The notes beneath the pieces are model-generated. The model did no database searches and was not told where the DNA came from. It saw only the letters and a program-made list of their open reading frames with translations. This document shows, piece after piece, positions 456-56,233 of a stretch of DNA of 64,000 bases (the stretch's first letter is position 1; each line of letters starts with the position of its first letter). The position numbers and the translations under genes were made by a program. The stretch spans positions 19,892,667 through 19,956,666 of the forward strand of contig NC_058043.1 of assembly GCF_020085105.1 (NCBI RefSeq), in the 5' to 3' direction. The DNA comes from Siniperca chuatsi. Lineage: Eukaryota > Chordata > Actinopteri > Centrarchiformes > Sinipercidae.

Positions 456-15206
<14,751 letters not shown>

Positions 15207-27977: not shown

Positions 27978-30644
27978 TCACATGTTGTTCAGCAGTGCCA
28001 TGACACCAAGTTCTGCCAGCTTGGCTTTGGCTACTTCCTCCCAGCCCTTATTGGCTAGTGGGTTCCTGGGCGACGGATGCATGATGCCCTCGACTCGCAC
28101 ATCGACACCTGCAGTGGACAGAGCTCGCCGCGCCCGCTGCTCTGCAACTCTTCCAACCCCGATCACCATGGAGACGCCCAGTACTTCCACCACCTGGCAC
28201 AGTGCAATGTCACAAAGGGCCAGGAGGGCATCCCGTTCACCTGGAATCAGCTCAGGGGGGGTTAAATTCTTTCCACTGGCACTCATGAAAATGAGTGGGC
28301 ATAGATTGTGCACAAAGCAGTGTTGGAAGAACAGTGCTGGTTCACCACACAACTTTCTGAAGAAGCCCCAAAAACGTGCGCCACTCACTTCACTCTGAGT
28401 GCAGGCAAGGCCTGTGATCCGTCGCTTTGGATGCTCATCAGGAGGATGACCGACCTCCCCTGTGATCTTCAGCCAATCAACAACTGACCTTATTTCACCA
28501 AAGGGGACCTGTGCAAAGAAAAATAGCATCATTTTATCTTTTTTGCACACATCAGAGCCACAACATTGAGAGTTACTGCAGTAAAGTCAGAAATTGAACT
28601 TTGTTATAAGTCACACCAACATCTGGTGAGGAAAACTGGAAAAAATATAGCTCAAACTGGGTGTGTATAGTGATATAGCATGCAGGAAAGCAGCATTAGC
28701 AAATACTAACTACGGTAGCAAGATAGGACATGATTACCTGGTGAATAAATGTAATTTTTGCTTCATTTTACACATGGTCAGATTAATCCATTATAGGGGT
28801 TCTGGGGCAAAAATTTGCTGTGGGCTCCATTTGATCCCTTTAAACCACGCTAAACAAAAATTCATATAGGAATATGACACTGCATTCAACCCGGTCGACC
28901 ACAACATATTACTAGACCGACTGGAAAACTGGGTGGGACATTCTGGCTCAGTATTAAACTGGTTTGAATCCTACTTAAAGGACAGGAACTACTTTGTGTC
29001 TATGAGTAATTACACATCTGAGCAGACATAAATTACATGTGAAGTTCCCCAAGGCTCCATTCTGGGGCCTCTTCTGTTTAACATCTACATGCTACCACTG
29101 ACTCACTGATTATTGAAAACAACAAAATATGTTACCATAGTTATGCAGATGACACACAAATTTATATAACAATGTCACCAGGGACTATCGTCCAATACAA
29201 TTGATCAGACAGCTGCAGCTGATTCAGAATGCTGCTGCTCTCGTCCTCACTAAGACCAAGAAAGTGGATCACATCAGGATCTCATCAGTGGATCACATCA
29301 GGTCTTTACACTGGCTTCCTGAATTGAATTTATTTCAAAATAATATTGTTGGTTTATAAAGCACTGAATGGTTTAGGGCCAAAGTACATTTCTGATCTTC
29401 TGTTACGTTATGAACCATCCAGACCTCTTAGGTCGTCTGGGACAGGTCTGCTTTCGGTCCCCAGAGTCAAAACTAAACATGGAGAAGCAGTTTTCAGTTT
29501 TTATGCACCATATATCTGGAACAAACTCCCTGAAAACTGCAGGTCTGCTGCAACTCTCAGTTCTTTTAAATCAAGGCTGAAGACTTCTCTGTTTGCCGCT
29601 GCCTTTTATTAAAACAAATAATGATTAATTTCTTACACAGCACTGTTTTTAAATGTCTTTTTACATTGCCTTATGTTGCTTTTATGTTTTATGTAAAGCA
29701 CTTTGAATTGCCTTGTTGTTGAAATGTGCTATACAAATAAACTTGCCTTGCATGTTTATTTTAACTCATGGTCCCTCAAAAGGACAGGTAGTCAAGACAG
29801 ATAATAATGCAGGATCCACCTGGCTTAAGTTCCTCATAGTAGTGCATATGTCCTAACAAAGTTGCAATCAATCACATCACAAACCAGCTGACACACAATC
29901 AATATGGGGTTTTCGGGGCCCCTGGTGGTCTGGGGACCCAGGGAAGCTGCCTGCTTTGCCCAGTTGGTAATTCAGCCTTGATTTTAAATGCATAATGCAT
30001 ATTCAGAGTAATATCACAGTCATTTGGCTTCGTGATGTTATGATAAAATACAAATAAAAAACGGAAAACGGTGGTGGCTACACATTAAAGTAAGGAAGGG
30101 AATGGAAATGAAAGATTGCTCATGTTTTCAGGTAAAGCAAGGCTGCCCCAGTTAACGAAAAGGCTTGTTATTGTTTGGGTTAGCTTCCGCATTCATAGCC
30201 AATGAGTAAAGAGCATTAGTGCGTAATCAATGCGTTAGTAAAATATCCATACTCCTGTACTGATCTACAAGTTAAACATGCTAAATGAAATCAAACGTAC
30301 ATGTATCTAAATGCTGTCCTCACCCCCGTCTGTGCCATGCCGAAAGGTCCTGGATTCATCCCCAAAAACAGGATCCTTTGTCCGCCCTGACAGTACTTCT
30401 CCACGTAGCAGCGGTGGGTGTCCCAGGCGTACTCCAGCGGGTTGTAAGTGTACCGGACAGGGTCACTGAAGGTGAGCCGACGGATGTGGGTGTTCAACTC
30501 CAGTTCAACCTGCAGAAATCTGGAGGAGCGGGTCACGTTGACCTCCGGTACTGGTTTAAAACCCTGCTCCTTTGAGTCACAAGAAGGCTTCTCTTCATCT
30601 CCACAAGCGCGCTTCACATCTGCAGATGTATTGTCATCCGACAT
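27978..30644 (-). CDS. smug1: Single-strand-selective monofunctional uracil-DNA glycosylase SMUG1
   Basis: Nuclear base-excision-repair enzyme that removes uracil and 5-hydroxymethyluracil from DNA. Two coding exons on the minus strand, 30324-30644 and 27978-28508, are joined by a GT-AG intron in phase 0, giving 283 aa (human protein about 270). Residues 1-45 are a poorly conserved leader. [18 protein letters not shown] follows, then glycosylase motif 1, [13 protein letters not shown], which spans into the exon 2 start VPFGE and holds the catalytic Asn. [17 protein letters not shown] and [11 protein letters not shown] are family signatures. Motif 2 is [13 protein letters not shown], with the catalytic-site His. 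The ATG at 30644 gives the expected length, and no in-frame upstream ATG is needed. The intron contains a LINE fragment on the opposite strand. Residues needed for activity appear intact. Confidence 0.97.
28870..29755 (+). mobile_element. Decayed L2-like LINE fragment in the smug1 intron
   Basis: On the plus strand, 28875-29180 reads as a broken reverse transcriptase ([13 protein letters not shown]-like, [16 protein letters not shown], then the catalytic motif YADDTQ at 29142), with an in-frame stop. After an internal deletion it continues with [14 protein letters not shown] and [17 protein letters not shown]. It ends in the 3' tail TGTAAAGCACTTTGAATTGC and ATACAAATAAA. It lies antisense to smug1. 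Not a functional gene. Confidence 0.88.
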
Positions 30645-34744: not shown

Positions 34745-35300
34745 CCCTTCGCCTTCACCAAGCATCTGCTAGGGGACAAGCACAGTGGCAGCCTCATGTG
34801 CTCAGCTGAGGATGTGAACACTGTTCTGCACAACACTCTGAGCGACCCAGAGGGAGACCAGAAGCCCGAGCCACACAAGGCCCTTGTAAGCATACAACCC
34901 CCAATAGTTGAGTTTGCCATGAGGGAGCCCAGCTGGATAGAGGTTCAGGAAGTGGTCAAAGCAGCAAGATCAGCCTCTGCCCCAAGTCCCAACGGAGTGC
35001 CATACACTGTGTACAAGCGCTGCCTGCAACTCCTTCGGCAACTATGGAAAATCCTAAGAGTGATCTGGCGCAGAGGAAGAGTTGCCAACCAGTGGAGGCG
35101 TACTGAGGGTGTTTGGATCCCCAAGGAAGCGAACTCTAAGAACATCAGTCAGTTCAGAACCATCTCACTGCTAAGCCTAGAAGGCAAGATATTTTTCAGT
35201 ACCCTGTCATGACGACTGAGTTCCTTGTAAAGAACTGCTAGATCGACACCTCAGTTCAGAAGGGCGGGATTCCTGGAGTGCATGGCTGTTTGGAACACAC
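34745..35300 (+). mobile_element. Non-LTR retrotransposon reverse-transcriptase fragment
   Basis: The plus strand reads REPSWIEVQEVVKAARSASA, PNGVPYTVYKRC and EGVWIPKEANSKNISQFR-TISLLSLEGKIFF, the fingers region of a LINE reverse transcriptase. After a stop or frameshift near 35213 it continues with VQKGGIPGVHGCLEHTG, recognisable as the next part of the same enzyme. It is truncated at both ends and is dead. Confidence 0.82.
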
Positions 35301-39818: not shown

Positions 39819-39992
39819 TCAGACTGCCAGCCGGCCTGGAGGGGGATGCAGGGGACTCCAGGTTGGGGGTGCAGGTGGAGGTTCTTGGGGGTATGGGCGT
39901 GGGTCGCAGCATGGCTGATTCTCTACTTTGGCTACGCTGCGACCCTGGCACAACCGCCGATGCCGCAACAGCCTGTCTGTCCGTGAAAAGTT
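39819..39992 (-). CDS. znf740: znf740 last coding exon: second half of finger 3 and tail
   Basis: The acceptor TTGAAG precedes AAC-TTT-TCA in phase 0. Encodes [18 protein letters not shown] and a Pro-rich tail ending GRLAV, then TGA. With the preceding CERCQQ this makes a C2HC-type finger identical in layout to mammalian ZNF740 ([14 protein letters not shown]). Mammals end soon after the finger, while here the tail adds about 40 residues. Confidence 0.92.
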   Translation of the reverse strand, partial: NFSRTDRLLRHRRLCQGRSVAKVENQPCCDPRPYPQEPPPAPPTWSPLHPPPGRLAV

Positions 39993-42900
39993 CTTCAAAA
40001 TACACAAATTGGACATGGTTAATAATTCGAGTAAATGTGGTGATAAATCAATTTAAATAGTTATCAATAAATCAATCTTCATATTGCACATTTTATATAT
40101 CCAAATGCAACATAAAGTGTCTCAAAGAATGACTTTAAACAATACATGGATATCATAATTATTACATTACAATGCTTACATTACATCACTTTTTGTACAT
40201 ACCTGCTGGCACCGTTCACACTGGTAAGGCTTCTCCCCACTGTGGACACGCTTGTGTCTCTCAAGGTGGTAGCGCTGGATAAACCTCATATCACACATGT
40301 CACAAGCAAATGGCTTCTCTCCTAAAAGATCACACAAATACACAGTCAATGCATCAATTTTAGCGTCTCGTACCAACAAACTGCGTGCAAAATTTCACTT
40401 ACTAAACTTTATTTGCAAACTATATTTCCAACACTTACAAAAAGTTGGGGGGAAAATGCCCTATCAGTAAATTTCAACAGTGTAGTTTCAGGATCTGTCA
40501 ATTAATATTCTAAAAAGGCCTCGTCATCAACTCATTATGTGTAGATCAGAGTGGACTTTCTTGTTTTCATGGCCCAGATCTACGCAACATAGTGGCCCAA
40601 AAGGTGGGGCAAGTAATTTGAGGCTGGTTCAACATCCCATCAAATGACTTGACAATCCAAACTCGAGTTTGTTGTGACCCCATAGTGTTGCAAGCGCCAG
40701 AGCCTCTCTCAGTGATAAGGGTATGGTGAAGGAACGCATACCCGTATGAGTGAGGCTGTGTCTCTCCAGGTGGTTACGCTGAATAAACCTCATGTCACAC
40801 ATGGAACAAGCATACGGCTTCACCCCTACACACACAGAGCAATATATTAGCCCTACCACCCACAGGTACAAGAAATACAACTTTCAAGCTCAAGCTAGCA
40901 CTAAAATACTGACAGATTATAGCTCATCATTTCTTAATATGTGCATTTCCTTATTTTAGAAAATATGTTGAAATGTACAGACATGCAACTAAGACCATAA
41001 GTTAAACTGTGAATAGAGTTAAGTCAGATTTTAACATATGGCGGAGCTAATCATGTCTGGCTTCAAAGCAAAAACACCCAGATCTGTCATATGCACTGTG
41101 TGAGATTAACATTTAATCACTGTCTTTTCTGAAACATAAATAACATCCTCACTTAACACTCAGCATCCTCTCACCTTCCATTAATTATGCTTATATTTAC
41201 ACCACAAAGATATTAATACATAATTAATGGTAATTTAGAAAAATGTTTCCCCTACAAGTCTTTGAGGTTGAATTTGAAACTGTTATTACTGAATATTAAA
41301 GTTTCCTAAAGCCATTATCTGCTTTTAAGGTTACAAAGATTTTTTTTTCCCAAAATGTTGTAGAAAGTTAAAGATACTGTAAGACTCATTAATATTTAAC
41401 AAATTGCCTCGATCCAATTGAATTCTACCGTAAATGCAAAATAATTTTAGTCATGGTAGAATTAGGTGTTTGGTTGTTCCATGTTGATTTGCCAAAAAAA
41501 AAAAGAAGAAAAGTCCTTTCAGATTGATTCATAAGTGACACAGCAGTACAAAGACTGTTTTTAGTAATGTTGGGTTTCAACAACCCATTCTGATTCAAAA
41601 TTTAGAAGAACTGTGGATCTGTTTAGTTTCGTGCTTTTCAGTTATGCTTATTGACTTTTGAGAGCAAAGTTTAAAGCTACTGCACTTCTGTGTGCGTGAC
41701 AAAAGAGATTATTGATTTTGTGATTCTTTTCTAGTTTAAAAAAGTAAAATGACTTATAAGAAATGACGATATCAGCCCAAAATGTGCTGCAAAGGTAGTT
41801 TTTGCTTTTAACATATTTTTGATTTACTTACTTTCTTACTAAAAATTGCAACTAGGACCTAATAAGAACCAGAATTCAATAGTGGAATTTCAGTCAGATT
41901 CTGCAGGCTTGCTCAACTGAATCTAACCAACAGATTGTGTATAAATCAAAACCTGAATATTGGCCTTTAGGATTCCCACCAACACCATCTGGATCAAGAT
42001 AGAATTTAAAGTTAAAGGGGAGGGAAGCAGACAGACGCACGCTACCTCTGTGACACATGGGCCCCATTTCCACCTGGCATTAACATGCGATCTCGTTGTC
42101 CTGACTGTTCCCGCATTGTGATCGGATCTCAAAGTTCAAATTACTTAGCTGGGATTGGCGGACTTGTCAGTAGACATGGCTTCCCAGGTCAAGGGAAGCA
42201 ATGCCATGGACACGCGTCATTTATTTCTAAAATCACTTTTTGTGAGGGAAGACTTGCTAGCTACTGCTACTACTTGTAGCTTTTGCTGGGCTTGCTTAAG
42301 ATAGCAGAAAGACTGCATTTACACCTGCGCATAACGCATTAACATGCGTTTTTCCTTGTCCAGATATCATATCTAGCTACAGATTGCATTTTAATACCAG
42401 GTGTAAATGATGTAATGGTGTCGCTTGCTTTTCGCTAGCCAGGTATTAGCTTAACCAGGAGTGTGTAACACACAAGAGGTTCACACTATCTGCCAACAAT
42501 TCTGGAGGGCAACTTTCATTTTTTGCTAAGTAGCTTCACCTAGTTTCAAGTAAAGGTTACAGAAATGTGAGATGAATAGTAAATACTTCTACTACGTCTT
42601 ACAAACAGCAACTAACCTGAGCACCTACAAAAAACGTGTTCTGACTATTATTGTAACCACAATAATAGTCAGTATATCTCATATTAGCACAATAAAGAGT
42701 AAATTGTGAGCTATATAATGTGAGAAGGGCAGGTGCACGGACCCATACCCGTATGAGTGAGGCTGTGTCTCGCCAGGTGGTAACGCTGAACAAACCTCAT
42801 GTCACACATGGTACAAGCAAAAGGTTTCACACCTAAACGCAGAGCATCAATACATTATTTTCAGGACTTTTAATTTCTGTGTCACAATCCATCAATCAGT

Positions 42901-43190
42901 AAAGTACTTTAAACATTTATTTACAATTGATGGGTTGTTAACCACTTTTCACTTGCTATTTGAAATTTTCCTAAAAAGGATGCATGTGGAGTTTAGATTT
43001 TTCCTCCAAATCCAATTAAGACTACATTAAACCGTGTTGATCAAATTTCAGATCCACAACTAAACACATCACATGAGCTGATGATGTCACAGTCCTGTAT
43101 TCATTTACATGTAAAGACTTGCTTTAATAATGCATTTACACACATAATGCAGGACAGCCTAGATCAAGAAAAATGTACAACTAGTTACTT

Positions 43191-43234
<44 letters not shown>

Positions 43235-46200
43235 TGCCTCAGACAGCTGACCCTGTATCTAATATAATATTAAATACAGTCTGATCTCAGTGACATGGGT
43301 AAGGTGGGCGGACGCATACCCATATGAGTGAGGCTGTGTCTCGCCAGGTGGTAGCGCTGAAAAAACCTCTTGTCACACATGGTGCAAGCATAAGGTTTCA
43401 CACCTAAATGCAAAGTAGCAATATTAAATGACTTTACCTCAATTTTCATTCTTTACAAATAAATACCTAAGCTATTGGTTATTAACCACATATTCGCCAA
43501 TTCATGCAAAAACAAAAAGATGTGTCACATGTTTCCTTCATGTAACAGCAAAGACAACTACACAACTGGTCGTTTTAGCTATATTGCCAATCAAAATGAT
43601 TAGCCATTATTATTCTAAAGAGTTACAATCACAGTCAGGGAGCACTGCAATCAATGCCTTTACTTTTGTGTATCTTGTTAATAGCCCATTGATTTAAATC
43701 ATTCTAAAGATTATCCAAATACGTTGCTTTATCAGCATTGTTAAAAGCACATTTCAATGTGAAAAGATAACACCAACATACATTTCAAGTAACTGAGCAT
43801 TTCACCACTAGTGATCCTGCCTATTAAAAAAGGGTTGATCAAGTAAGATAATTTCTGAAAAGCGATTTGTAAGAACTGTGGTGACCAAAAATGCAGGCAC
43901 AAGATGTGGCCAAATGTGTCAGTATTGCTGGTTTATACAGCCTTTTTAGTGAATTGTTATAAAAAAAAAAAAGGTGCTAAATGTTCTAGAGGGTATCATT
44001 TATTATTATTGTATGTAAATTGCCTTAACCTACTTAGAGTAAAGGTTACAGAAATGTAACACACACACATACTTTGCTGATATTAGCACAATAAAGACTA
44101 TGTAATAATGACCTACAAAATGTGAGGGGCAGGTGCACTGACGCATACCCGTATGAGTGAGGCTGTGTCTCGCCAGGTGGTAACGCTGAACAAACCTCAT
44201 GTCACACATGGTACAAGCAAAAGGTTTCACACCTAAACGCAGAGCATTAAGGTATTATTTTCAGACTTTGTAATTTTTGTGCGTGTTCACAATCCATCAA
44301 TAAGCAATATACTTTAAATACCTATTCAGAATTGATGGGTTGTTAACCACTTTTTTCAATTGTTTTGAAATTTCCTTTGCAAGAAATTAATTCTTGTTTT
44401 TAATGGTTGTTTTTCCTCAAAATCCAATAAAGAATACATAAAACTGTGTGAACCAATTCTCAAATCCACAACTTAACACATCACATGAGCTGATGATGTT
44501 GCAGTCCTATATTTCTTTACACATTAAGACTTGCTTTAATGTCTTTACACACATAATGTAGGGTAGGCTTGATCAAGAAATCTTTCTACTGATCAGTTTA
44601 AGAGTATACTAATGACTACCTTAGATGGCTGACTCTGTATCTAACATGATGTAATAACAGTCTGATCTCAGTGACATGGGTAAGGTGGGCGGACGCATAC
44701 CCATATGAGTGAGGCTGTGTCTCGCCAGGTGGTAGCGCTGAAAAAACCTCTTGTCACACATGGTACAAGCATAAGGTTTCACACCTAAATGCAAAGTGGC
44801 AATATTATATTACTTTGCCTCATTTTCCCTTTTTTTAAATTTAGGAATTAATATCTACACTATTGGTTATTAACCACAGAATTGCCAATTCATGCAAAAA
44901 CACAAAACTTTCTTTTTAAATATTTTCTTTATAATGCCTTTATCCATTTCATAGTGTTGTAGTTACAAACAAACAAACAAAAACTAAATTTATGGTTAAC
45001 CTGCTCAAATAATAATGGCTAACATCAAACAGACTAGGAAACCTTGTTTATTCATAATGACATTTCCCTTAAATGTAACACTGAAATTAAATGTGCACAC
45101 TGATTTCTAACACTGAATGTCATGGGCACGGTGCACGGACCCATACCCGTATGAGTGAGGCTGTGTCTCGCCAGGTGGTAACGCTGAAAAAACTTCATGT
45201 CACACATGGTGCAAGCATAAGGTTTCACACCTAAACGCAGAGCATCAAGAGAATTATTTTTGTGTCTCTGCCACCAAGAGAAAATAAATAAATCTGTACT
45301 CCCATTTTATAACTTAGGAGTACCAATCTGGACTAAATTGTTATCAGTGGTTAATAACCAATGTCATACCCTAAAATTACTTACAAGGGTACAATATGAT
45401 ATAATAAGATGCTTGTTTCAAATTACAAAATTCCCAGAGGGCATCTAAAATCCACTTACACAACACATGAGATGATGATGTCATGTATTTGATATTACTT
45501 TTGAATAATTTGTGTATAAATACATAGACTAGATCAAGAATACAGATGTTGCAGCATCCTAATCTTGTGACAGGGTTAAGATTGGCTGACGCATACCCAT
45601 ATGAGTGAGGCTGTGTCTCGCCAGGTGGTAGCGCTGAAAAAATCTCTTGTCACACATGGTGCAAGCGTACGGCTTCACCCCTATACACACAAAGTACCAA
45701 CTTTAGCATAAAACACTCAACTGCCAAAAATGATCGACATTAAACTTTACTAATTGCTTAGTAAAGTTTGGGTGCACTTATCAGCGCTGTTTACACTGGA
45801 AATTCCAGCACACTTCAAAAATCTGCTTTTCCAATTGGAAATGACATTTTCACATCTGACTTAAGTTTAAATGTAACTGCTTAAGGCCTAAGGCCAAAGT
45901 TTGAATTAGAAAAATTGAGGGATAATGAAAATATCCTGTGTAGAAAGCAAAATTAACTTAACTATTAATTAATTAACTTCAAACCTAAAAAACAACCAAA
46001 TGACCAGACAATTAATTGAGGCGAAACCAAAGTCCCTAGTGGACAAATTCCAACTAGCACAATAGCAAGTTTTTCACACGATGCCAATAGGTGCTTATGT
46101 TCATGTAATTTCAACATACCGCATCCAGATTTCTGGAATAGATGTGTTTAATGTAAATACTTGAATTTTTGTAACGCTGATCGCAGAGGTTAGACAATTT

Positions 46201-49200
46201 TAGGCAGTTGGTAAACAACTATGCACAACACATTAAGACTGGACATTTGTTTGTAGAGCAACTCTTGTGATTTAACTTAAACTCGTTTATAGTAATGGAA
46301 ACTGCTCCTAAAAAACCATAATACAGAACCTAGCTTTTGATTTTATGCAAAAAGAAGCCATTAACTCTGCTCTCTCTTCAAATTTAAAAATTGTACTGTA
46401 AAAGCCAACAGGCAAAATAAAGAACATCCTTATACAAAACCTGTTACCAAATATGATAGACAATGAAACTAAACTATTACTATATAAAACAGAGGATTAT
46501 GTTATTTCCTCACCATTACTTTGAATGTGAAATGACACAATGACTAAGCTGTGTGAGCAGTCAGCTCTAACTTTGCATGTTTTAATTTTTTACAAGAAAA
46601 AAAAAATTCTCTGTGTGAATTCTATTCTAAATATAAGCTAAATATGAAGTCCCATTCACATCAACTGAGACCCCACAATGTTTTCCCCCCATACAGGTCT
46701 AGCTCCCCACCAGGCCACATTACATAGCCTTAATTCAGAATGATAATTTCCACAACTGCTCCAAAATGAACAGGACTCTCTGTGTCATTACCTGGAAAAT
46801 CCTTGAGTCCTTTATAATGGGAGCTACAGCTAATCGGATTCCTGTTTATTTTTAATTGCACAAATCTAGAATTGATCAGCTGTTGGGAGTCACACGCCTG
46901 CAGCTCCTTCCCAGTAAACGCCTTCTTGACCCAGTTTTTCCATTCTTGCAGTTGTTAAAATTCTATGTGATAATTCAAGTTTGATTCATGCTTGTGCTTC
47001 AAACCACATTTTTAAAAATAAATCAATATTTCAAGCACTTTTGTGAGAAAGATTCTTCATTACATCCAGCTATTGGGGCTGACTATGTACTCCATGCTGT
47101 ATTATGTCAAATCAGAATTTCTACTTACAGCTGAGCTGATTCAAATAAATGCTACAAACCAAAGAGTGGTGTTGGCATTTTTGCGTCATGGTCATCATGT
47201 CATTTCATATAAAAAGTATGGGCGGAAGTATTGTTATGCAAGTGCTTATGAAGCTCCTTGCAGATGCTACATGAAATATTAACACTTGTTAATATAGAGA
47301 CAGAATGCAATACAAACTCGAGTTTGAAGCAGCCATGTAAACATTAATGCGCAAGCATGACTAAAATCAGGGAAAGAGAGGGTCAAGGTTGAAAAAAATT
47401 AGGACATACCTGTATGAGTAAGACTGTGTCTCTCCAGTTGGTAACGTTGTATAAACCTCATGTCACACATGGTACAAGCATACGGCTTCACCCCTAAACA
47501 GAGCACAAGAATGTCTGATGAAGTTCATGAAAACCAAGATTTAAAAAGACATCGTGAAATGCTTTCAGCTTGTTTATTATTGCATGCTTTATTACAGACA
47601 CAATTCTGTTAGAGACATTACACAAAAAAAAGACTTTAAAAACCTGCAGACATCAAGAGTAAGGTGCATCATCAATGAAGGAGAAATATGGCTTACATGC
47701 TACAGTTTGGACCAGCTTGATTAATATTCAGTCATCCTGCAAATAAACTGTTGATGGTGGTGAAAAACTTGTTGAAACTTGGTTTTTCAAGTTATCCCAT
47801 GCTCAAGATGCACCATTTCACTATTTAGTCAGGCTGAACATTCTTGTATTTGCCTGAAAAACTCTTGAGAAACATAGCCTCTTTTCCTGACATTTTAGAC
47901 TATTGATGCCTGCATTTAAAACTTTTTAGTGTAATGTGCTTTTTATTGGGTATGTGATATAGTATTCAACAATACACATGCAACAGTACCATTACAATGT
48001 TCACACAAAAGAAGGTAACTGACAAGGGAGAGAGTCACTTTTTCAGTGGACAGTTTTCCAACAAAGCCTAAAAATTCTAATAAACATTTTTTTAGAAGGG
48101 GAAATTTATTTACCAACAATGGCATAATTATGGTATTGTATATAGAGGGAATAAAAAAAATTCATGTGTAGGTTGTTTATATGAAAGGTTTCATAGTGAA
48201 AGGGGAACAATTAATTCAAGCATACCAGTATGAGTGAGGCTGTGTCTTGCCAAATGGTAACGCTGGAAGAACCTCATGTCACACATGGAGCAAGCGTATG
48301 GCTTCACCCCTAAACGCACACAGTACCAAACTTTAGAAAAGTGTTCTCATGAACTATGTACACAAAATATGTCATTTTACATACAGTAGTCAGTGTTATG
48401 TCATTACAAGGTCTCAAGTATTTTCATGGCCAACTAGTCTCTATACATACAAGAAATAAAATGTTATGTCAACCCTAAAAGCAGTTAGCAAATACAGTGA
48501 GTACACCAGAAAAGAAAAAAAAATTATAATAAAATCGACTAGAGCTTAAACAATCCACATTCAAACCTTTCATATTTAAGGTATTGAATGTGGATTGAGT
48601 AATAAAAATTACAATTTGCTTTGTGTCAAAGTACTCTCACAGGTAGGTGATGCCTACACACAAGGGCAAATATCTACAATCCCTGATGCTGTCAAGTGAG
48701 AGGGATAAATAAAAAACTTATACCCGTATGGGTGAGAGTGTGTCTTGCCAGGTGGTATCTTTGGAAAAATCTCATGTCACACATGGAGCAAGCATATGGC
48801 TTCACCCCTGCACACACAGAGCAAAATATTTTGTAAAAACAGCACAATGAACTGAACAGGACACACTCATTTACATCACGTATCCAGACATGCCAAAAGC
48901 AGTGGCACCAGTATGATGTAACAGTAAATGCATTTCGCTAACATTTTATAATCTGTCGACATGCATGATAAAGGGACCTCAATGAAAACGTCTTTCTACT
49001 GAACTCAGTGCAGCTTTTCAATGCCGACATGCATTGCAAAGGCTGAAAACGTCTTTAGACACAAGTCAAGGTGTAATTTACAGGCACTGCTGTGGAGGTA
49101 CTGTAGCTTGAGAAAATCTGTCCAAAATAGTGCCTGAAAGGGTTAAGCCATAAAACTGAAAGGCACTCCTCCCCAATAGTTAAAACTGCTTGATGCTTAT

Positions 49201-52200
49201 GAATATTTTAAAAACCAGACTACAAGTCATTATATAAACAAGGGAAAGATAAACTTCAGTAAACTGGGTATTTGGGCACTAATGTAGCAAAGAAGGGTGA
49301 ACCCATACCCGTGTGAGTGAGGCTGTGTCTTGCCAAGTGGTAGCGTTGGAAAAATCTCATGTCACACATGGAGCAAGCGTATGGCTTCACCCCTACACAC
49401 ATAAAAAAGTATGCAAATGTAAGCTAGAAACAGAAAAAATAAGTTTCAACACATAACCATCAACTCTTCCCTTAGAATAGCTCTTTTGCTTCTACACATT
49501 ATATCATTAGCCTGAGAAAATAGGCATTTGTGTTGTATTGTGACCACGTGGGTTATTTCAGTCAAACAACAACAAAAAAAACTATCTTAAAAAATTAGGA
49601 GTAATGAACAAATTAATTGCGCAGAACAAAGTAGAGCATTCAGCAGGGGAAAAGCTGCAGTTTTATACATTCAGGTGCCCCACGTATGCATGTATTTACA
49701 TCAAGAGCTAAAAATGGCATGTTTTATATTTTACCATCCTAATACATGTCTGGATACAGCTTTGTGTTTCTGAAAATGTGAATATTTGAAGCTGGTAGTC
49801 ATTTTAGACACTCTAAATCTCTGTTTATACTGCTATGAGTGATAAAGTTAAGGCACTTCTAAAACACCACTACCTAATGAGCTAGGGTAAGCAGACGCAT
49901 ACCAGTATGAGTGAGGCTGTGTCTTGCCAGATGGTAACGTTGGAAGAACCTCATGTCACACATGGAGCAAGCGTACGGCTTCACCCCTACATACACAAAG
50001 TATCAACATATTAGCTAAGACGTTCCTTAAGCATCAAAGGAAAGCATCATTCACAGGCATTAAATCACTAGGACCTGGCAGACATTACAGATTCCAATCA
50101 AGCTTCATGTGAAGGGGTCATTTTTTTAATTTATTTTTTTTTACTTCTAATTAGTAAATATCTTCTGTTATAGGGAGCGGTCATTTTCAAAGAATCTGGT
50201 GTACATTATAAAACTAAAGCAGCAACAGGATATAAGCCAAGCATGTTTAAAACAAGACATACAAGTCAGCAGCAAGATGGTAAAGAAACGTCTAAGACGG
50301 TGATCACACTGGCCAGCTGAAGCAGAAACTTAGCACACTAGCACACTTCTCCACTGTTCACAATTGCAAGTGTCAACAGCATTTTTCAGCACTGTGGTGA
50401 GCATATTTGTTGCCATTTACTGCAAATTGGTTTAACGTCTATATAGTGCATATTAATTAAATTTATGGTGGCATGAAAGTGTGTGTTGCTTTGAAGTGTT
50501 ACAAGTGTGCTTGTTTTCTAGCACTCCAAAGTGATGATCTGCCTTAACTTTCAAAAGCTTCCAATCTGATCTCCGCCATAAACTTACAGCAGAAGCATCT
50601 GTATAAGCAACAGTGCAACTATATAATAAAATCAATTTAAAAAGCCAGACAACGACAGCTAAGACACATGAGCTGTGCAGCCATTAATCTGCATATATAA
50701 TAAGTGTGGACATCAAAGGACTATTCCCATAATATACCATGGCCTAGGTTAATCGGCTACTTCAATATGGCTGGATCAGGCAGGAGGGCATTAACAAAAA
50801 CTGTTACCCAATGTAAAATATTAACTTCAAATTCTAACTTAAATAATTAATTAGCTAATTTAAACTTTCTAGTAAAACCATGCACAACCAGATTTTCTAA
50901 ACACTTGAGTAAGCTAGTCTCCTGAAAAATGTGTCTGCAAAATTATATTATTTTGTCCTTAATTCATTGTGACCAGTCAGCCCCATCTCTTATACTGTGG
51001 CTATGACGCAATGTCGATTTCTTCAAAAATCCTAACTATGATGGAGAAATCCATTGATAGTAAATATTGTATCTCAGTTAATGCGACCGGATATGCAAAA
51101 TGTGTAGAACTAACGTACACTACTACGCTACGTCCACAATGTATGATAGCTAACAGCTAGCTTTATATCTTCAGCTCTGCTAGCATGATAAAGCACCAGT
51201 AACAATATCCTTGGAGAATAAAAAATAGAAAAACATAAAGCCAGAGTAAATTTTGTTGAGCCGCAATGGTACAAGAGGGATAATACACTTTGAGGGGTCC
51301 ACGGGAGCTTTTAGTTCATGTCAGGTGTTTACTTACATCTATTCATACCATGCATTACAATAAATGGGCCACAATTGGACATGTTAAACATCAGCCATTG
51401 ACGATGGTGATGATGATTCAACCCTGTAGTAATTCTAGAGGCTATTGTCTCAACTGTTGTTGTGTTGGACTGCAAAAAGATGTTTCTATATTTTGTCCAC
51501 CCAATTCAACAAAAGGATTTATACGTTTCTTAACAGTAGGATGTACTCCAGGTCTTTTGTATTAGATTGTCTTATACTGTATACATATAACTTTTATATT
51601 TCAACGTACTACTGATATTTTTATAAGTCTACATTTTCTAATGATAAATGGTTGAGATCAGGTGCATCTGGGAAAAAGTCTATGTTGAGGAAAAACAATG
51701 GTTTAAAAAAAGGCATGAAATCCTTGAGCCAAACACTGATCCTAGGACTCCTTAATACGGGATAATGAATAATCCTTTTATGATATGCAAAATGCAATAC
51801 TACAGAACTGCTTAAATGTTCTCTTGACCAACAGTCCAACATATAAAAGGTTACTGTAGGATTTTTACAAGACTTTTCTGATCAACTCCTAAAAGGCTGT
51901 TTTGGTCCTGCATGTTTGCTTGTATGTTGTTTGTGTGGTTGTCCAGAGTGTATATGTTTTTGTTCTTAAGCCTCTCCTGAATAAGAACTATTGATCTCAA
52001 TCAGACTACCTGATTAAATAAAGTTTCTTAACTTGAACTGGGTACGGTAAATGGACGCATACCCGTATGAGTGAGTCTGTGTCTCTCCAGGTGGTAACGC
52101 TGGAAAAACCTCATGTCACACATGGAACAAGCGTACGGCTTCACCCCTACACACACAGAGCATAACATTATTAGCTATTCAGTCTATCAAAGAAGCGAAA

Positions 52201-55200
52201 ATGTGGAGAAACAAAATCAGAAAATGTATTATGTTGAAAATAGAAAGAACAGATGCAGTGTTGCCACAAAGAGCAAATGCTTACTCAAGCCACTGGGATA
52301 TTAGAATAAAATAAAATATTTGTATACATAAGTATATATAAACCATGCTAACTGAGATGGGTAGATTTGGCCAACAGTTTACTATTGGTGCATTGCTTTT
52401 GGTGAATACTGGGGCAGTAGTCACTGACTTGGAAAAACGATAAGGTTGGAAGTTGACTTACCCACAGCATACTTCTTAAACAAATGAAAAACAAAGAATT
52501 TTGTGTGAAAGGGTGCAACGCAAATATTGACACTATGCAAATGTTTTAACTCAAGTCCTCAATTTTCATTGTATAAAAACAAGAACATAGTCCTTTGATG
52601 TCCATGCAGTTGTTTTCATTGACAAAGTAATATTTACATATAAAAATTATAAAACAAATAAATCTAGCATGTTTTTTGTGGCCTGTGCTTGGAGGCTTTC
52701 ACATACATACACTGGGGTCCACTTTCAAGTCCACTATCAAAAAGTCTTGTTTACAGAACCGTTTATCATTTGCCAATATAATTGATATAATTTGTTTTTC
52801 CCAGTTGTTTCAATAATATCTTATTTAATACTGATACAAATCTATATTTTTATATCCAAGAAATGCACACAGAAAAGTGACAAAAATATTCTGAATATTC
52901 AAATAGTAGCACAAGTACCTTTTGTAATACATAGTGAGAATTATTTTTCTCTTTCAACAGACAATACCATACTTTGACAAAATTAATATGGTCGCCAATG
53001 TGTCACTACTGCTAGTGCTTTAATGAGTTTCAACTTAACATACTTTCAACTGGTTTGTTAACATTGTTTGAGGAAACCAATATTGTGAAGCCAAGTGGTT
53101 CTCTTGAATATTAAGAAAAGTTTTCCAGCACAGTCTCCTTGTAAACTCAAAAGTTCTACAGGGACTGCATGCTGCAAAGATTTTCTGAAGTCAAATCATC
53201 CAGACCAAGACATAGCAGACTAAGAATAAAGCATCCAGTATGCTTCAACAGAAGTGTTTGTCGGATGGTCAAACAGTGTGGGTGGTCAGATGTGGTCTGT
53301 TGTACTTGTGACCACAACCAGCTGTGATATAGCACTGCCAAATAGTGCACTGTGAAGTGTTGTACTGCACAAGGTGTTTACAGAGCATGCAGCAACTGCT
53401 GGACGGCAGAACACGCAGGATTATTAGCCTGGGTGTGGTTACTCTTTAGTGACCACACCATGTAAAGACCAGTTTATCAAGCTGACATTTGCAGGACCCA
53501 ACAGCATTTACACGAACAACACAATTTCAAGTGAACAAAGAACCTCCTATTTGCCTTGTTAAAACAATTTAACAACAAAACAAGTTAAAACGATGGGCCA
53601 AAAACGGCCATGGGCCAAACAATATCAAAGTATCACAGTTGAAGACAGAAAGAAAGTAGTTTTTACAGACAAATAAAATTTTTAATTTGCAAAAAAAATT
53701 TATCACAAGAGAGGCTAATTTCTCCATCCACAGGCACCAGAGCTCAACCCAACTTAATCTGGAGAAAAGGAGGAATGCGCCTCAAACATCTCTGGGATCC
53801 TCTAAAATAGTGCTAAAAAAATTGTGGATTCTCAAATCCTGCAAACATTTCTACATCTGATGCTAGTCACAATGTAAGCAATGATTAAGGCAAATAATGG
53901 ACATCCAAAAGGGGAATAAAATGTATCATAAATGTTGAAACAACAGTTTTTAATAGTGGACTCTGGACTATTGGACCGCACTGTATTACATCGCCTTCTG
54001 TAAATTTTTCCTGGTGTTGGGGGACCAATATTTATGAGGCAAATACTGTGCTTTACATTTTGGGGTGAACAGATTTTGGGGGGTGGCTTTGTTGGAAATT
54101 ACTGTCCACAGACAAAATGAACCCTGAGCATCTGTCCATTGATTCAAGTGACAGACTACAGATGTAGTCCGATTTATGTAATATGGGTACGGTTAAAGGA
54201 CGCATACCCGTGTGAATGAGGCTGTGTCTCTCCAGGTGGTAACGCTGAATAAACCTCATGTCACATACGGCACAAGCATACGGCTTCTCCCCTAAACCGA
54301 AGAGCACCAGTTTTAGTTCAAGTCCCCACAGATACCACCAATTAGCTGTGAGGAAAAAGCTATTACCAAACAAGGTTTTTAAGCAGGCCATTGCAAAACC
54401 TTACAGTTGCTGCACACTCCTAGATTCAGTCCAACTCAAGCTTTCAGGGCCTCTTTCAACAAATGATTAATGTAATCAAGCATTAAAAGCTGTTTTGCTT
54501 AACTGCAAACGCGACTTGTTCGAAGCATAACTCATACCTGTATGAATGAGGATATGTCTCTTCAGGTGGTATCCACTCCTAAATGCTCCGTAACAGTGAT
54601 CACAAATAAAGTTTTTCTGCACTTTGGATGATGGACCATTCTCATCCCCACCTGTGCCCTAATGAGGACAGTAAAGAATAACGGTTCAACATTTGTTTCA
54701 AATGCCATTTTAACAGTGCACTAATAATATAAACTAAGAACCAGTGCATTTTACCACAAACACAATCTTTCAAACATACCCACCCACAACTGCTCAGGAC
54801 CTGATGAAAATCTAAAACTCCTGTGAAATTTCAGTAAATGTAAGACATATTATGATTTCTACTACACTCTAAAGACTTTATATTTTTAATGGTTTATCTT
54901 TTCTAAAACCCAAGTTATCTTTAACATTTGAATTGAGAAATACCCCACAGTCCCTTCCGATGGCCTAATGCCCTCATGTTACTGCCCCCCGTTATGCACA
55001 CAACTGCAGTTATTGTGCTCCGCTTCACTCTGCTCCCCTCCCCCCTCTTTCCTCTCTAGAGATCCTCCACCCCCTCCACATCTTCCCTGAACTCCTCCCC
55101 CCACAAACAAAAAGTGCACACATGAAAGCTCCAAGTCAGGCGCACTTGAATAAAGTGAAATGCTTTTACAAAAACATGTGCAAGTAGCTAACGACACGTT

Positions 55201-56197
55201 TGAGGTAATAAGGAAAAATGTAAATGAAAAAATAATAGCAGAGACCATTCCCTATTTAGCAACCACAGCCACTGACCTTCCCACCCCTTCCCTCTTGTTC
55301 TCTCACTTTACAGGGCGTTACTGATTTCCTGTTCTTTTTTTTCTGCTGCATGTCCTCGTTGGCCCTCATCTCCTTCTCGTCCAGCAGGCGGGGAGCTTGG
55401 AATTCACCTTCCTTCCGGATAAGCTACAGAGCCAGAAAAAGTAAATTATTTCCTAATTTCAGATCTGTTAGCTTTAAAACAGATTATCTGAACATGACTA
55501 AAATTAAATGATAAATGTGGACCTCTATTATGTGCATTTTTTGCCACTGCCAGCTGAAGAAGCCAGTGTTAAATAGTGTGGGTTTGTACATTTTTACATT
55601 TTGATTTTAGTAAAAGCCAACAATGATTTGAAACTATTTTAATAATTTTCATCCATATACTGTGCTGGTTAGGGCAAGGTTTTGTCCATCTGAAACAAAT
55701 CTAAATTTGAATAAAAACAATAAAACTGTTGTTTCTGGAGGGATAAGGACAATGGGATATGTGGAGCTTCTAAAACTGTTTGCCCTTACCTATAACCTGG
55801 TAGTGATTATGTCAATATGTTTTTCTGTCCTTAAAAGCTTGTATGACATAAATTGGAATATGAGTTCATACGTGAAAACTAAACAAAAAACAATAAGTGG
55901 GGGTTGTTTTAAAGTAGAATAAATCATCATGACTACATTCAGTGGGAAAGTCCTCCCACACTGAAATGTTCAATTCCATAAAGGCGATGGGTTTACACCC
56001 TTCGCAATATTAAAAGCATATAACAGCCCCATTGCCCAGCGGGTCCTAACCAGGGGTGGACAGCTCATTCCAGATGGGAGGATCATATGGCTCTGGGGAC
56101 CACGGTCAGGGCCCTCCCTTTGTGGTGGTCCATGGCCAAGTGGAGCCATCATTTTTTTGGGCGGAGCGGCCATGGAGCTGGCCTGCATCAGGGCCAT
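39819..56197 (-). CDS. znf740: ZNF740 with an expanded array of one-finger cassette exons
   Basis: C2H2 zinc-finger DNA-binding protein; mammalian ZNF740 has three fingers and prefers C-rich sites. Constitutive exons (minus strand): 56051-56197 (start [17 protein letters not shown]), 55277-55423 (basic linker, KKKNRKS), 54538-54658 (finger 1, [20 protein letters not shown]), 40203-40321 (finger 2 [14 protein letters not shown] plus the CERC of finger 3), 39819-39992 (rest of finger 3, [14 protein letters not shown], then a Pro-rich tail). These alone give 235 aa. Between finger 1 and finger 2 lie 14 further 84-nt exons, each one finger and phase 1-1; including all gives 627 aa with 17 fingers. 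The first ATG is chosen because the putative non-coding exon at 59321 is closed by an in-frame TAA. Which cassettes are used, and whether together, cannot be told from DNA. Confidence 0.9.
40203..40321 (-). CDS. znf740: znf740 ancestral finger-2 exon (finger 2 plus half of finger 3)
   Basis: 119 nt, entering in phase 1 and leaving in phase 0. Encodes [20 protein letters not shown] through [20 protein letters not shown]. It has canonical TGEKP-type linkers on both sides. It matches mammalian finger 2 best and is probably the template from which the 14 cassettes derive. Confidence 0.95.
40742..40825 (-). CDS. znf740: znf740 cassette exon 14 (last in transcript order)
   Basis: 84 nt, phase 1-1, acceptor TAG, donor GTATGC. 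One finger: [28 protein letters not shown]. The helix position 2 residue is Asn where the other cassettes have Tyr, one of only two contact-residue changes in the array. Confidence 0.9.
40826..42748 (-). other. znf740: znf740 intron between cassettes 13 and 14
   Basis: AT-rich. 42060-42410 resembles a short fish DNA repeat (CACCTGGCATTAACATGCGA and later ACGCATTAACATGCG). A perfect 14-base hairpin lies at 42641-42672. No degenerate finger copy is visible. Confidence 0.5.
42641..42672 (-). other. Perfect hairpin downstream of cassette exon 13
   Basis: CTGACTATTATTGT followed after four bases by its exact reverse complement. It would form a 14-bp stem in the pre-mRNA, 76 bases after the donor of cassette 13. 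The matching place in duplicate copy B lacks it. Confidence 0.7.
42749..42832 (-). CDS. znf740: znf740 cassette exon 13
   Basis: 84 nt, phase 1-1, TAG acceptor and GTATGG donor. Finger [28 protein letters not shown]. Identical protein to cassette 11 (44149-44232), the partner from the duplicated two-exon unit. A perfect hairpin lies 76 bases after its donor. Confidence 0.9.
43192..43233. repeat. (TAA)n microsatellite
   Basis: AAT/TAA trinucleotide run of about 42 bases, present in copy A but absent at the matching place in copy B. Confidence 0.95.
43320..43403 (-). CDS. znf740: znf740 cassette exon 12
   Basis: 84 nt, phase 1-1. Finger [28 protein letters not shown]. Lys replaces Met before the Arg, and Met replaces the linker Thr. 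The protein is identical to cassettes 10 and 8 (44701-44784 and 45597-45680). Confidence 0.9.
44149..44232 (-). CDS. znf740: znf740 cassette exon 11
   Basis: 84 nt, phase 1-1. Finger [28 protein letters not shown], the same as cassette 13 including its flanking intron sequence. Confidence 0.9.
44701..44784 (-). CDS. znf740: znf740 cassette exon 10
   Basis: 84 nt, phase 1-1. Finger [28 protein letters not shown], the same as cassette 12 including flanking intron sequence. Confidence 0.9.
45147..45230 (-). CDS. znf740: znf740 cassette exon 9
   Basis: 84 nt, phase 1-1. Finger [28 protein letters not shown]. Lys replaces the otherwise invariant Arg before the core Phe. It is the first-position member of the older two-exon unit. 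Confidence 0.9.
45597..45680 (-). CDS. znf740: znf740 cassette exon 8
   Basis: 84 nt, phase 1-1. Finger [28 protein letters not shown], the second-position member of the older two-exon unit. Confidence 0.9.
45681..47409 (-). other. znf740: znf740 intron between cassettes 7 and 8
   Basis: AT-rich intron of 1.7 kb. I see no extra finger, degenerate cassette or clear mobile element. Confidence 0.5.
47410..47493 (-). CDS. znf740: znf740 cassette exon 7
   Basis: 84 nt, phase 1-1, donor GTATGT. Finger [28 protein letters not shown]. Helix position 3 is Gln rather than His, the second contact-residue change in the array. Both zinc-binding His residues remain. Confidence 0.9.
48226..48309 (-). CDS. 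znf740: znf740 cassette exon 6
   Basis: 84 nt, phase 1-1. Finger [28 protein letters not shown]. The protein is identical to cassettes 4 and 3, but they differ at synonymous sites. Confidence 0.9.
48551..48597 (-). other. Inverted repeat in the intron between cassettes 5 and 6
   Basis: CAATCCACATTCAA at 48551 and its exact reverse complement at 48584-48597, with a 19-base loop. Confidence 0.65.
48724..48807 (-). CDS. znf740: znf740 cassette exon 5
   Basis: 84 nt, phase 1-1. The only cassette with a CAG acceptor, and the donor is GTATAA. Finger [29 protein letters not shown] perfect 14-base inverted repeat lies in the intron between cassettes 5 and 6. Confidence 0.9.
49309..49392 (-). CDS. 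znf740: znf740 cassette exon 4
   Basis: 84 nt, phase 1-1. Finger [28 protein letters not shown]. Confidence 0.9.
49903..49986 (-). CDS. znf740: znf740 cassette exon 3
   Basis: 84 nt, phase 1-1. Finger [28 protein letters not shown], the same protein as cassettes 4 and 6 but with several synonymous changes. Confidence 0.9.
49987..52062 (-). other. znf740: znf740 intron between cassettes 2 and 3, with LINE tail
   Basis: 2.1-kb intron. At about 51930-52030 the plus strand ends a LINE-like tail (GATCTCAATCAGACTACC then GATTAAATAAAG) immediately before cassette 2. No extra finger copy is visible. Confidence 0.5.
52063..52146 (-). CDS. znf740: znf740 cassette exon 2
   Basis: 84 nt, phase 1-1. 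Finger [28 protein letters not shown]. It combines the Phe of the inner cassettes with the Glu at helix position 5 of the outer ones, so it is intermediate in type. Confidence 0.9.
52147..54207 (-). other. znf740: znf740 intron between cassettes 1 and 2
   Basis: 2.1-kb AT-rich intron. Part of 53640-53990 may be an old DNA-transposon fragment, but I could not confirm it. No extra finger copy is visible. Confidence 0.4.
54208..54291 (-). CDS. znf740: znf740 cassette exon 1 (founder-like)
   Basis: 84 nt, phase 1-1. Finger [28 protein letters not shown]. It is the only cassette with the canonical TGEKP linker at its start. Its 5' part matches the finger-2 exon, and its 3' end (SLIHTG plus donor GTATG) matches the finger-1 exon. 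Confidence 0.92.
54538..54658 (-). CDS. znf740: znf740 finger-1 exon
   Basis: 121 nt, entering in phase 0 and leaving in phase 1, so it can splice directly to any cassette or to the ancestral finger-2 exon. Encodes a short linker then [26 protein letters not shown]. This closely matches mammalian finger 1. Confidence 0.93.
55277..55423 (-). CDS. znf740: znf740 linker exon
   Basis: 147 nt, phase 0-0, 49 codons beginning [20 protein letters not shown] and containing the basic QQKKKNRKS segment, a plausible nuclear-localisation signal. Both splice sites are consensus (GTAG acceptor, GTCAGT donor). Confidence 0.8.
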
Positions 56198-56233
56198 ACT
56201 GGAGAGGACAGCTTCGCAGCCAAGCAGCCCCGC
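56051..56233 (-). CDS. znf740: znf740 first coding exon
   Basis: Acceptor at 56234 (TTTGCAG), donor GTTAGG. Translation in the frame of the next exon reads AGLLGCEAVLSS before [17 protein letters not shown], resembling the mammalian N-terminus (ASLLACEG... then KKMM). Start is most likely the ATG at 56197, since the putative leader exon carries an in-frame stop. If a different first exon supplies an ATG, all 61 codons would be coding. Confidence 0.75.

What the first reader, a model, noticed from the sequence alone, without database searches (positions are those of the whole stretch)
40203..54658. Array of 14 one-finger cassette exons inside znf740
Seen: between the finger-1 exon and the ancestral finger-2 exon sit 14 extra exons, each exactly 84 nt, each phase 1-1, each coding one full C2H2 finger. 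All retain four zinc ligands, open frame, an AG acceptor and a GTATx donor. Known: mammalian ZNF740 has three fingers. Inference: finger number is set by splicing, from 3 to 17, with 2^14 in-frame combinations in principle, or one cassette chosen at a time. Either would be an unusual Dscam-like use of exon duplication in a transcription factor. Complete absence of broken copies among 14 argues for selection.
Basis: partly seen in the sequence, partly recalled or inferred. Interest (0 to 1): 0.92.

Follow-up and report, generated by a model that had tools for sequence, protein, structure and literature searches.

The report
Fourteen-exon finger array in fish znf740
In this fish genome one copy of the gene-control protein ZNF740 has gained fourteen extra exons, each coding one intact DNA-binding zinc finger and kept intact by natural selection, so that a three-finger protein could become one with up to seventeen fingers.

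Summary
On the minus strand, 14 extra exons lie between the finger-1 and finger-2 exons of a znf740 gene. Each is exactly 84 nt, phase 1-1, AG...GTAT bounded, and codes one intact C2H2 finger. They are not relics: omega 0.146, 2dlnL 44.4 against omega 1, and 0 of 400 neutral simulations kept all 14 intact. The gene's duplicate on C10, with a RARG-like gene 247 kb away, has no cassettes. The cassettes look like a chimera: F2's acceptor and first two thirds joined to F1's end and donor, as one unequal crossover inside finger-coding DNA would leave. The Dscam-like choose-one reading is not supported: 14 cassettes encode 9 proteins, base-contact residues barely vary, none is broken. Cumulative inclusion, giving up to 17 fingers, is likeliest; weak donors leave room for finger number to vary. 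No RNA and no other fish could be examined. Closest precedent: teleost piccolo b, where one ohnologue's zinc-finger exon was amplified 8-16 times (PMC3484663). No C2H2 transcription-factor version turned up in the six paper searches aimed at it.

The parts
56051..56233 (-). znf740 upstream coding exon E2 (reading begins here or in an earlier short exon)
   Evidence: start exon not settled
55277..55423 (-). znf740 coding exon E3
54538..54658 (-). F1 exon (finger 1, donor CAG|GTATGA)
54208..54291 (-). cassette c1 [28 protein letters not shown] (keeps GEKP linker)
52063..52146 (-). cassette c2
49903..49986 (-). cassette c3 (protein identical to c4 and c6)
49309..49392 (-). cassette c4
48724..48807 (-). 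cassette c5 (weakest donor, GTATAA)
48226..48309 (-). cassette c6
47410..47493 (-). cassette c7 (strongest donor CAG|GTATGT; helix 3 His to Gln)
45597..45680 (-). cassette c8 (type A, ends in Met; protein identical to c10, c12)
45147..45230 (-). cassette c9 (type B)
44701..44784 (-). cassette c10 (type A)
44149..44232 (-). cassette c11 (type B; DNA identical to c13)
43320..43403 (-). cassette c12 (type A)
42749..42832 (-). cassette c13 (type B)
40742..40825 (-). cassette c14 (helix 2 Tyr to Asn)
40203..40321 (-). F2 exon: ancestral finger 2 plus the start of finger 3
39819..39992 (-). last coding exon: rest of finger 3 and C-terminus to the stop codon

Best explanation
A functional, constrained array of tandemly duplicated one-finger exons in one of the two copies of znf740. 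SHOWN: 14 intact symmetric exons under purifying selection; no array in the C10 duplicate; chimeric make-up of the cassettes. INFERRED: (1) one unequal crossover between F2- and F1-coding DNA made an 84-nt exon with F2's acceptor and F1's donor, automatically in frame; (2) the exon and later two-exon units multiplied by further unequal crossing over, with some exon-sized conversion; (3) most or all cassettes are spliced cumulatively into the mRNA, giving a protein of up to 17 fingers, with some skipping at weak donors giving shorter forms; (4) because helix contacts are nearly constant (Q at -1, H at 3, R at 6), extra fingers lengthen or strengthen contact with the same G/C-rich kind of site (target recalled) rather than change specificity.
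For: Anatomy. Selection: omega 0.146, 2dlnL 44.4 vs omega 1; c3/c4 8 synonymous and 0 nonsynonymous differences, c8/c10 6 and 0; in the c10-c11/c12-c13 duplication the exons differ at 1 of 168 bases, the inner intron at 92 of 456; 0 of 400 neutral simulations left all intact in either setting, mean 13.4 of 14 broken without and 13.7 with indels. Duplicate at C10 without cassettes: in 50 kb the cassette profile finds only F1 and F2 below E 0.8, with a RARG-like gene on both chromosomes. Chimera: for c14 and the consensus, sites left of the breakpoint zone match F2 23 and F1 2, right of it F2 0 and F1 7, Fisher 1.1e-5; c1 3.1e-4 (zones set). The cassette profile hits F2 over positions 8-85 and F1 over 61-107. 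For cumulative use: redundant proteins and zero broken copies fit a design in which one bad cassette spoils the whole protein. Precedent: in zebrafish pclob RT-PCR and RNA-seq show each repeated exon spliced in, with few skips (PMC3484663 section 11).
Against: No transcript was seen. 13 of 14 cassette donors score below the donors of F1 and F2 (matrix recalled), which fits skipping as well; E2's donor is weak too. A few close pairs have omega near 1 on small counts (c1/c14 1.01, c10/c11 and c10/c13 1.14, c9 against c11, c12 and c13 0.83-0.85), so constraint may be uneven. Support values of the cassette tree are 25-90. Conversion among c9-c13 may explain part of their likeness. The right-hand end of the cassettes, where the chimera signal lies, also carries linker and donor, so some convergence on F1 is possible; the C10 copy of F1 matches the profile over 36-104, not only the end. 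G-rich stretches in the gene that pair with the cassette flanks leave RNA-structure control open.
Confidence: 0.68

Rival explanations
1. Regulated finger number: splicing deliberately varies how many cassettes enter, by tissue or stage, so that finger count (3 to 17) is a tuned variable, as in Ikaros but over a much wider range. (Overlaps in part with the best explanation, which allows some skipping.)
For: All subsets are in frame; weak donors and modest pyrimidine content before cassettes, 9-12 of 16; Ikaros clones able to make 4, 3 or 2 fingers clustered by finger number (PMC12896614 passages).
Against: No RNA evidence. Weak donors alone do not show regulation. In pclob, a similar array, skipping was rare in the samples described first, though some was seen in other tissue samples.
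Confidence: 0.25
2. Dscam-like mutually exclusive choice of one cassette per transcript.
For: Tandem homologous exons of equal length and phase. G-rich stretches of the gene pair well with the donor-side flanks: of 7997 stretches of the window, 56564 ranks 1, 55076 ranks 6 and 54788 ranks 7 by mean, and 40860 ranks 1, 56564 ranks 2 and 54788 fourth or fifth (tied) by third-weakest. 40860 beat its shuffles 200 of 200 by third-weakest, 56564 (24 nt) 200 of 200 dinucleotide shuffles by mean.
Against: Only 9 distinct proteins and three contact-residue types among 14; no frame penalty for co-inclusion; introns between cassettes are 362-2076 nt, too long for simple steric exclusion (recalled). The pairing sites were picked afterwards, the flanks share ancestry so that any complement scores with most of them, and other G-rich stretches far outside the gene rank as high (5244, 35756, 8268). 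The best sites in the F1-c1 and c14-F2 introns rank 341 and 532 (down mean), 117 and 463 (down third-weakest), 551 and 440 (up mean), 94 and 94 (up third-weakest) of 7997.
Confidence: 0.06
3. A relic array: duplicated exons that are skipped and drifting.
For: Weak donors; the duplicate has no cassettes.
Against: omega 0.146, no broken copies, 0 of 400 neutral simulations as intact.
Confidence: 0.02

Closest known systems
Teleost piccolo b (pclob) zinc-finger exon amplification (PMC3484663; abstract, passages and sections 11, 21, 26 read)
   Same: One of two teleost duplicates has one zinc-finger exon amplified (8-16 copies in different species), the other has not; symmetric exons; unequal crossover proposed.
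   Different: Zebrafish pclob exons are 702-1350 bp, frame 0, of diverse length, in a synaptic protein whose 4x CXXC fingers span exon borders. Here: fixed 84 nt, phase 1-1, one whole C2H2 finger per exon, in a transcription factor's DNA-binding domain, with an F2/F1 chimeric make-up.
Ikaros (IKZF1) splice isoforms (PMC12896614, passages read)
   Same: Number of C2H2 fingers in the DNA-binding domain can be set by exon skipping.
   Different: A few exons and at most four fingers in the core domain; no array of duplicated one-finger exons (recalled).
Dscam1 and other mutually exclusive exon clusters (PMC6071210 and PMC5740500, passages read)
   Same: Tandem arrays of homologous exons of like length.
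   Different: One exon per transcript; docking and selector pairing in several. In humans most such exons are in clusters of two and 71 clusters have 3-10 (PMC5740500).
ZNF148/ZNF281-type genes (names recalled) at C20 and C21 of this genome
   Same: Related fingers; their second finger reads as an 84-nt phase 1-1 exon (by eye).
   Different: One such exon, no array in the 20 kb looked at for each.
PRDM9 and KRAB polydactyl finger genes (recalled)
   Same: Expansion of C2H2 finger number by tandem duplication.
   Different: Fingers lie in one exon and contact residues diversify; here one finger per exon and contacts are conserved.

Membership tests
znf740 orthologue | F1-F2-F3 finger set with a linker intron between F1 and F2 and F3 split by an intron | tested here: met
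   Same layout in the C2 gene and, by eye, in the C10 duplicate; the human sequence was only recalled
znf740 orthologue | Synteny with RARG (recalled for human) | tested here: met
   Nuclear-receptor ligand-binding exon at window 13.3 kb (Pfam Hormone_recep; name RARG recalled); its best other match is on C10 at 16899129, 94% over 64 residues, 247 kb from the C10 gene
Mutually exclusive (Dscam-like) exon cluster | Tandem homologous exons of like length and phase | tested here: met
Mutually exclusive (Dscam-like) exon cluster | Only one cassette per transcript | not testable with these tools
   No RNA held
Mutually exclusive (Dscam-like) exon cluster | Docking and selector pairing | tested here: inconclusive
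Mutually exclusive (Dscam-like) exon cluster | Variants differ in protein | tested here: not met
   9 distinct proteins of 14; contact residues: -1 Q 14/14, 6 R 14/14, 3 H 13/14, 2 Y 13/14
Single-ohnologue exon amplification (pclob type) | One duplicate amplified, the other not | tested here: met
Single-ohnologue exon amplification (pclob type) | Copies intact and under constraint | tested here: met
Single-ohnologue exon amplification (pclob type) | Copies all spliced into the mRNA | not testable with these tools
   No RNA held
Single-ohnologue exon amplification (pclob type) | Present, with varying copy number, across teleosts | not testable with these tools
   No relatives of this genome are held
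Finger number set by splicing (Ikaros type) | Isoforms that differ in finger number | not testable with these tools
   Frame allows it
Relic or pseudo-exon array | omega near 1 and broken copies | tested here: not met

The most novel reading that the evidence does not exclude
A transcription factor whose DNA-binding domain is a splice-adjustable ruler: because every cassette should read nearly the same bases, the number of cassettes included (0-14) sets how long a G/C-rich tract the protein grips, so splicing tunes binding length and affinity rather than sequence.
Probability: 0.2. Interest if true: 0.88.

Novelty: new variant of a known kind. Interest (0 to 1): 0.7.

Why it matters
If used, this is a vertebrate transcription factor that went from 3 to as many as 17 near-identical fingers in one of two duplicates while its sister shows no such exons: a natural experiment on what finger number does. 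The chimeric make-up suggests a general route: wherever two neighbouring fingers are separated by an intron in the linker, a single crossover within finger-coding DNA yields a ready-made, in-frame, spliceable one-finger exon. It also adds a case to piccolo b, whose author was not aware of another extensive domain amplification confined to one of two teleost ohnologues, though his own survey of zebrafish genes found a smaller one, esyt1b with 9 C2 domains against 5 (PMC3484663 section 26).

Tried and rejected
Relic array: rejected. Assembly artefact: rejected, since the inner introns of the most alike units differ at 92 of 456 aligned bases. Copy of the ZNF148-type second finger: rejected in favour of the gene's own F2 and F1. 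The cassette profile hits F2 at E 1.2e-20 and F1's end at 3.3e-9, but the C20 second finger at 1.7e-4 and the C21 one at 0.015; their third fingers, counterparts of F2, score 2.3e-9 and 4e-9. Dispersed copies: a genome-wide DNA search with c10 gave 13 matches, all in this array (12 cassettes and F2; it missed c2 and c5, so it is not exhaustive). Docking-site scan: inconclusive. Other species: a scan of prokaryote contigs for host-DNA carry-over gave 38 pattern matches and no relative. Solved structures: 244 matches, none of the 60 shown is ZNF740. Papers: 'znf740' is in 113 held papers; of the 40 listed none has a title about an exon array; 'znf740b' in 1; combined searches on zinc-finger exon duplication gave 3, 0 and 0 papers and a last one the piccolo paper and a GATA paper. 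Searches for Ikaros, exclusive exons and titin PEVK (0 papers) were for comparison. The library lacks most subscription papers. PMC11350041 and PMC10119265 were looked at by passages only and say nothing on finger number or motif there.

Not run: structure prediction, RNA-family search, RNA model building, promoter scan.
Full report
WHAT IS THERE. The window is C2:19892667-19956666 of a 718.8-Mb genome in 65 contigs, by content a fish (inferred). A six-frame scan for C2H2 fingers found 16 on the minus strand between 40.2 and 54.6 kb, and one further pattern match at 3.8 kb taken as chance: F1, 14 cassettes, and F2. Each cassette is exactly 84 nt, starts after AG, ends before GTAT, splits its linker glycine codon in phase 1 on both sides, and keeps C-C-H-H. 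Introns between cassettes are 362-2076 nt. The coding sequence joins to 235 aa without cassettes and 627 aa with all 14; every junction codon that any subset could form is glycine. Pfam scores 16 stretches of the double-finger model in the 627-residue product. The first coding exon was not settled.

IDENTITY. The finger order and the split third finger fit ZNF740 (human sequence recalled, not fetched). An exon of a nuclear-receptor ligand-binding domain, which I name RARG from recall, lies 26 kb away (window 13.3 kb; Hormone_recep). Its best match elsewhere, 94% over 64 residues, and a second znf740 lie 247 kb apart on C10 (four weaker receptor matches of 83-90% lie on C9, C17, C20 and C21). 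So C10 carries the duplicate, most simply from the teleost genome duplication (inferred). In it F1 and F2 are separated by an intron of about 0.5 kb with no cassette; in 50 kb the finger scan gave F1, F2 and one unrelated pattern, and the cassette profile gave F1 and F2 and nothing else below E 0.8.

SELECTION. Several cassettes differ at many silent sites and at no amino acid: c3/c4 8 synonymous and 0 nonsynonymous, c3/c6 3 and 0, c8/c10 6 and 0, c8/c12 5 and 0. A codon model that I wrote, on the 14 cassettes, gives omega 0.146; 2dlnL is 3.93 at 0.08, 3.49 at 0.25, 6.31 at 0.30 and 44.4 at 1. Neutral simulation on a synonymous-distance tree broke 13.4 of 14 cassettes on average (13.7 with indels) and never left all intact in 400 runs of either setting. 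Against this, some close pairs have omega near 1 on small counts (c1/c14, c10/c11, c10/c13, c9 with c11-c13). A profile search found no other copy, broken or whole, in the window below E 0.8.

HISTORY. At sites where F1 and F2 differ, the first two thirds of the cassettes follow F2 and the last part F1: consensus left F2 23, F1 2; middle F2 2, F1 1; right F2 0, F1 7; Fisher 1.1e-5; c1 alone 3.1e-4 (sites where the cassette matches neither were left out, and the zones were set). The profile match to F2 runs over positions 8-85 and to F1 over 61-107. The switch lies in or just after a shared stretch TACCACCTNNAGAGACA. This is what an unequal crossover between F2- and F1-coding DNA would leave: F2's acceptor and F1's donor on one new one-finger exon. 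Later c10-c11 and c12-c13 arose as a two-exon unit: exons differ at 1 of 168 bases, the inner intron at 92 of 456. One synonymous change in two exons is fewer than the intron divergence would predict, so conversion or constraint on silent sites acts as well (inferred). Between older copies similarity stays clearly above background for about 10 nt before and 30 nt after each exon (the 15 pairs among c8-c13 left out of 91).

WHAT THE CASSETTES COULD DO. Helix contact residues hardly vary: -1 Q 14/14, 6 R 14/14, 3 H 13/14, 2 Y 13/14, although helix position 5 is E in 4 and A in 10 (the numbering of contacts is recalled). Three groups of cassettes are identical in protein, so 14 cassettes make 9 proteins. 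Choosing one would give little diversity, and with such redundancy broken cassettes should have accumulated; none has. Cumulative inclusion explains this: one bad cassette would spoil the whole protein (inference). That ZNF740 binds G/C-rich sites is recalled; no call tested it.

SPLICING SIGNALS. With a recalled human donor matrix, cassette donors score 0.4-2.4 except c7 (5.65) and c5 (-2.1); F1 scores 4.0, F2 5.65, E3 4.4 and E2 1.4. Cassette donors are thus mostly weak, which would permit skipping. A scan of 7997 24-nt stretches of the window for complements of the cassette flanks gave no lead in the F1-c1 or c14-F2 introns (best ranks on the four measures: 341 and 532, 117 and 463, 551 and 440, 94 and 94). 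It did put G-rich stretches in or near the gene high for the donor-side flanks: 4 of the top 8 by mean (56564, 59404, 55076, 54788) and 5 of the top 8 by third-weakest (40860, 56564, 59404, 54788, 55068) lie in the 39.8-59.5 kb stretch, about 31% of the window. The one at 40849-40872, just before c14, came first by third-weakest and beat all 200 shuffles on that measure (196 or more of 200 by mean); 56564 and 54788 also beat most of theirs, 55076 and 54332 mostly did not. These were picked afterwards and the flanks share ancestry, so the test is inconclusive, not negative.

COMPARISON. The nearest case is teleost piccolo b: one zinc-finger exon amplified 8-16 times in one duplicate, the other unchanged, with RT-PCR across exon pairs showing each repeat spliced in and skipping of only one detected, RNA-seq showing few skips in heads and some evidence of skipping in other samples (PMC3484663: abstract, passages, sections 11, 21, 26). 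Its author was not aware of another such expansion confined to one teleost ohnologue, though his survey lists esyt1b with four extra domains. Human exclusive exons are mostly in pairs, with 71 clusters of 3-10 (PMC5740500 passages). Ikaros clones grouped by number of available fingers (PMC12896614 passages). In ZNF148/281-like genes of this genome (names recalled) the second finger reads, by eye, as an 84-nt phase 1-1 exon, so the modular exon form is probably old in this group.

VERDICT. A real, selected array; cumulative use most likely (0.68 for the whole explanation, which overlaps with tuned number), exclusive choice unlikely. New variant of a known kind. How old it is and whether it occurs in other fish could not be tested.

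Noticed in passing
window 40849-40872 (minus strand): G-rich stretch CTTGTACCTGTGGGTGGTAGGGCT just upstream of c14 pairs at -18 kcal/mol or better with the donor-side flanks of 12 of 14 cassettes (32-nt form); possible RNA-structure element or chance. Similar stretches at 54788 and 56564.
   Followed up: partly
first 30 nt after each cassette donor: A loosely shared stretch (about ACC-TACCC--TCAC) follows many cassette donors and is not seen by eye after F1; in c10 and c12 the first 44 intron bases are identical. Possible splicing element or conversion tract.
   Followed up: partly
all cassettes: The linker is TGVKP (or MGVKP after c8, c10, c12) at the start of c2-c14 and TGEKP at the start of c1 and F2.
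   Followed up: no
window 13277-13552 +: Exon of a nuclear-receptor ligand-binding domain (Pfam Hormone_recep), RARG by recall, with its closest other match on C10.
   Followed up: yes
window 23526-23768 -: CALCOCO1-like exon (Pfam CALCOCO1 and SKICH, both just below cut-off).
   Followed up: no
window 27978-30644 -: Open frames that look by eye like SMUG1 (uracil-DNA glycosylase); Pfam gave no hit.
   Followed up: no
window 29346-29612 + and 34796-35212 +: Open frames that look by eye like fragments of LINE-type reverse-transcriptase proteins.
   Followed up: no
G000:C20:12953999-12954061 and C21:6033879-6033941: ZNF148/281-like genes whose second finger reads as a lone 84-nt phase 1-1 exon.
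   Followed up: partly
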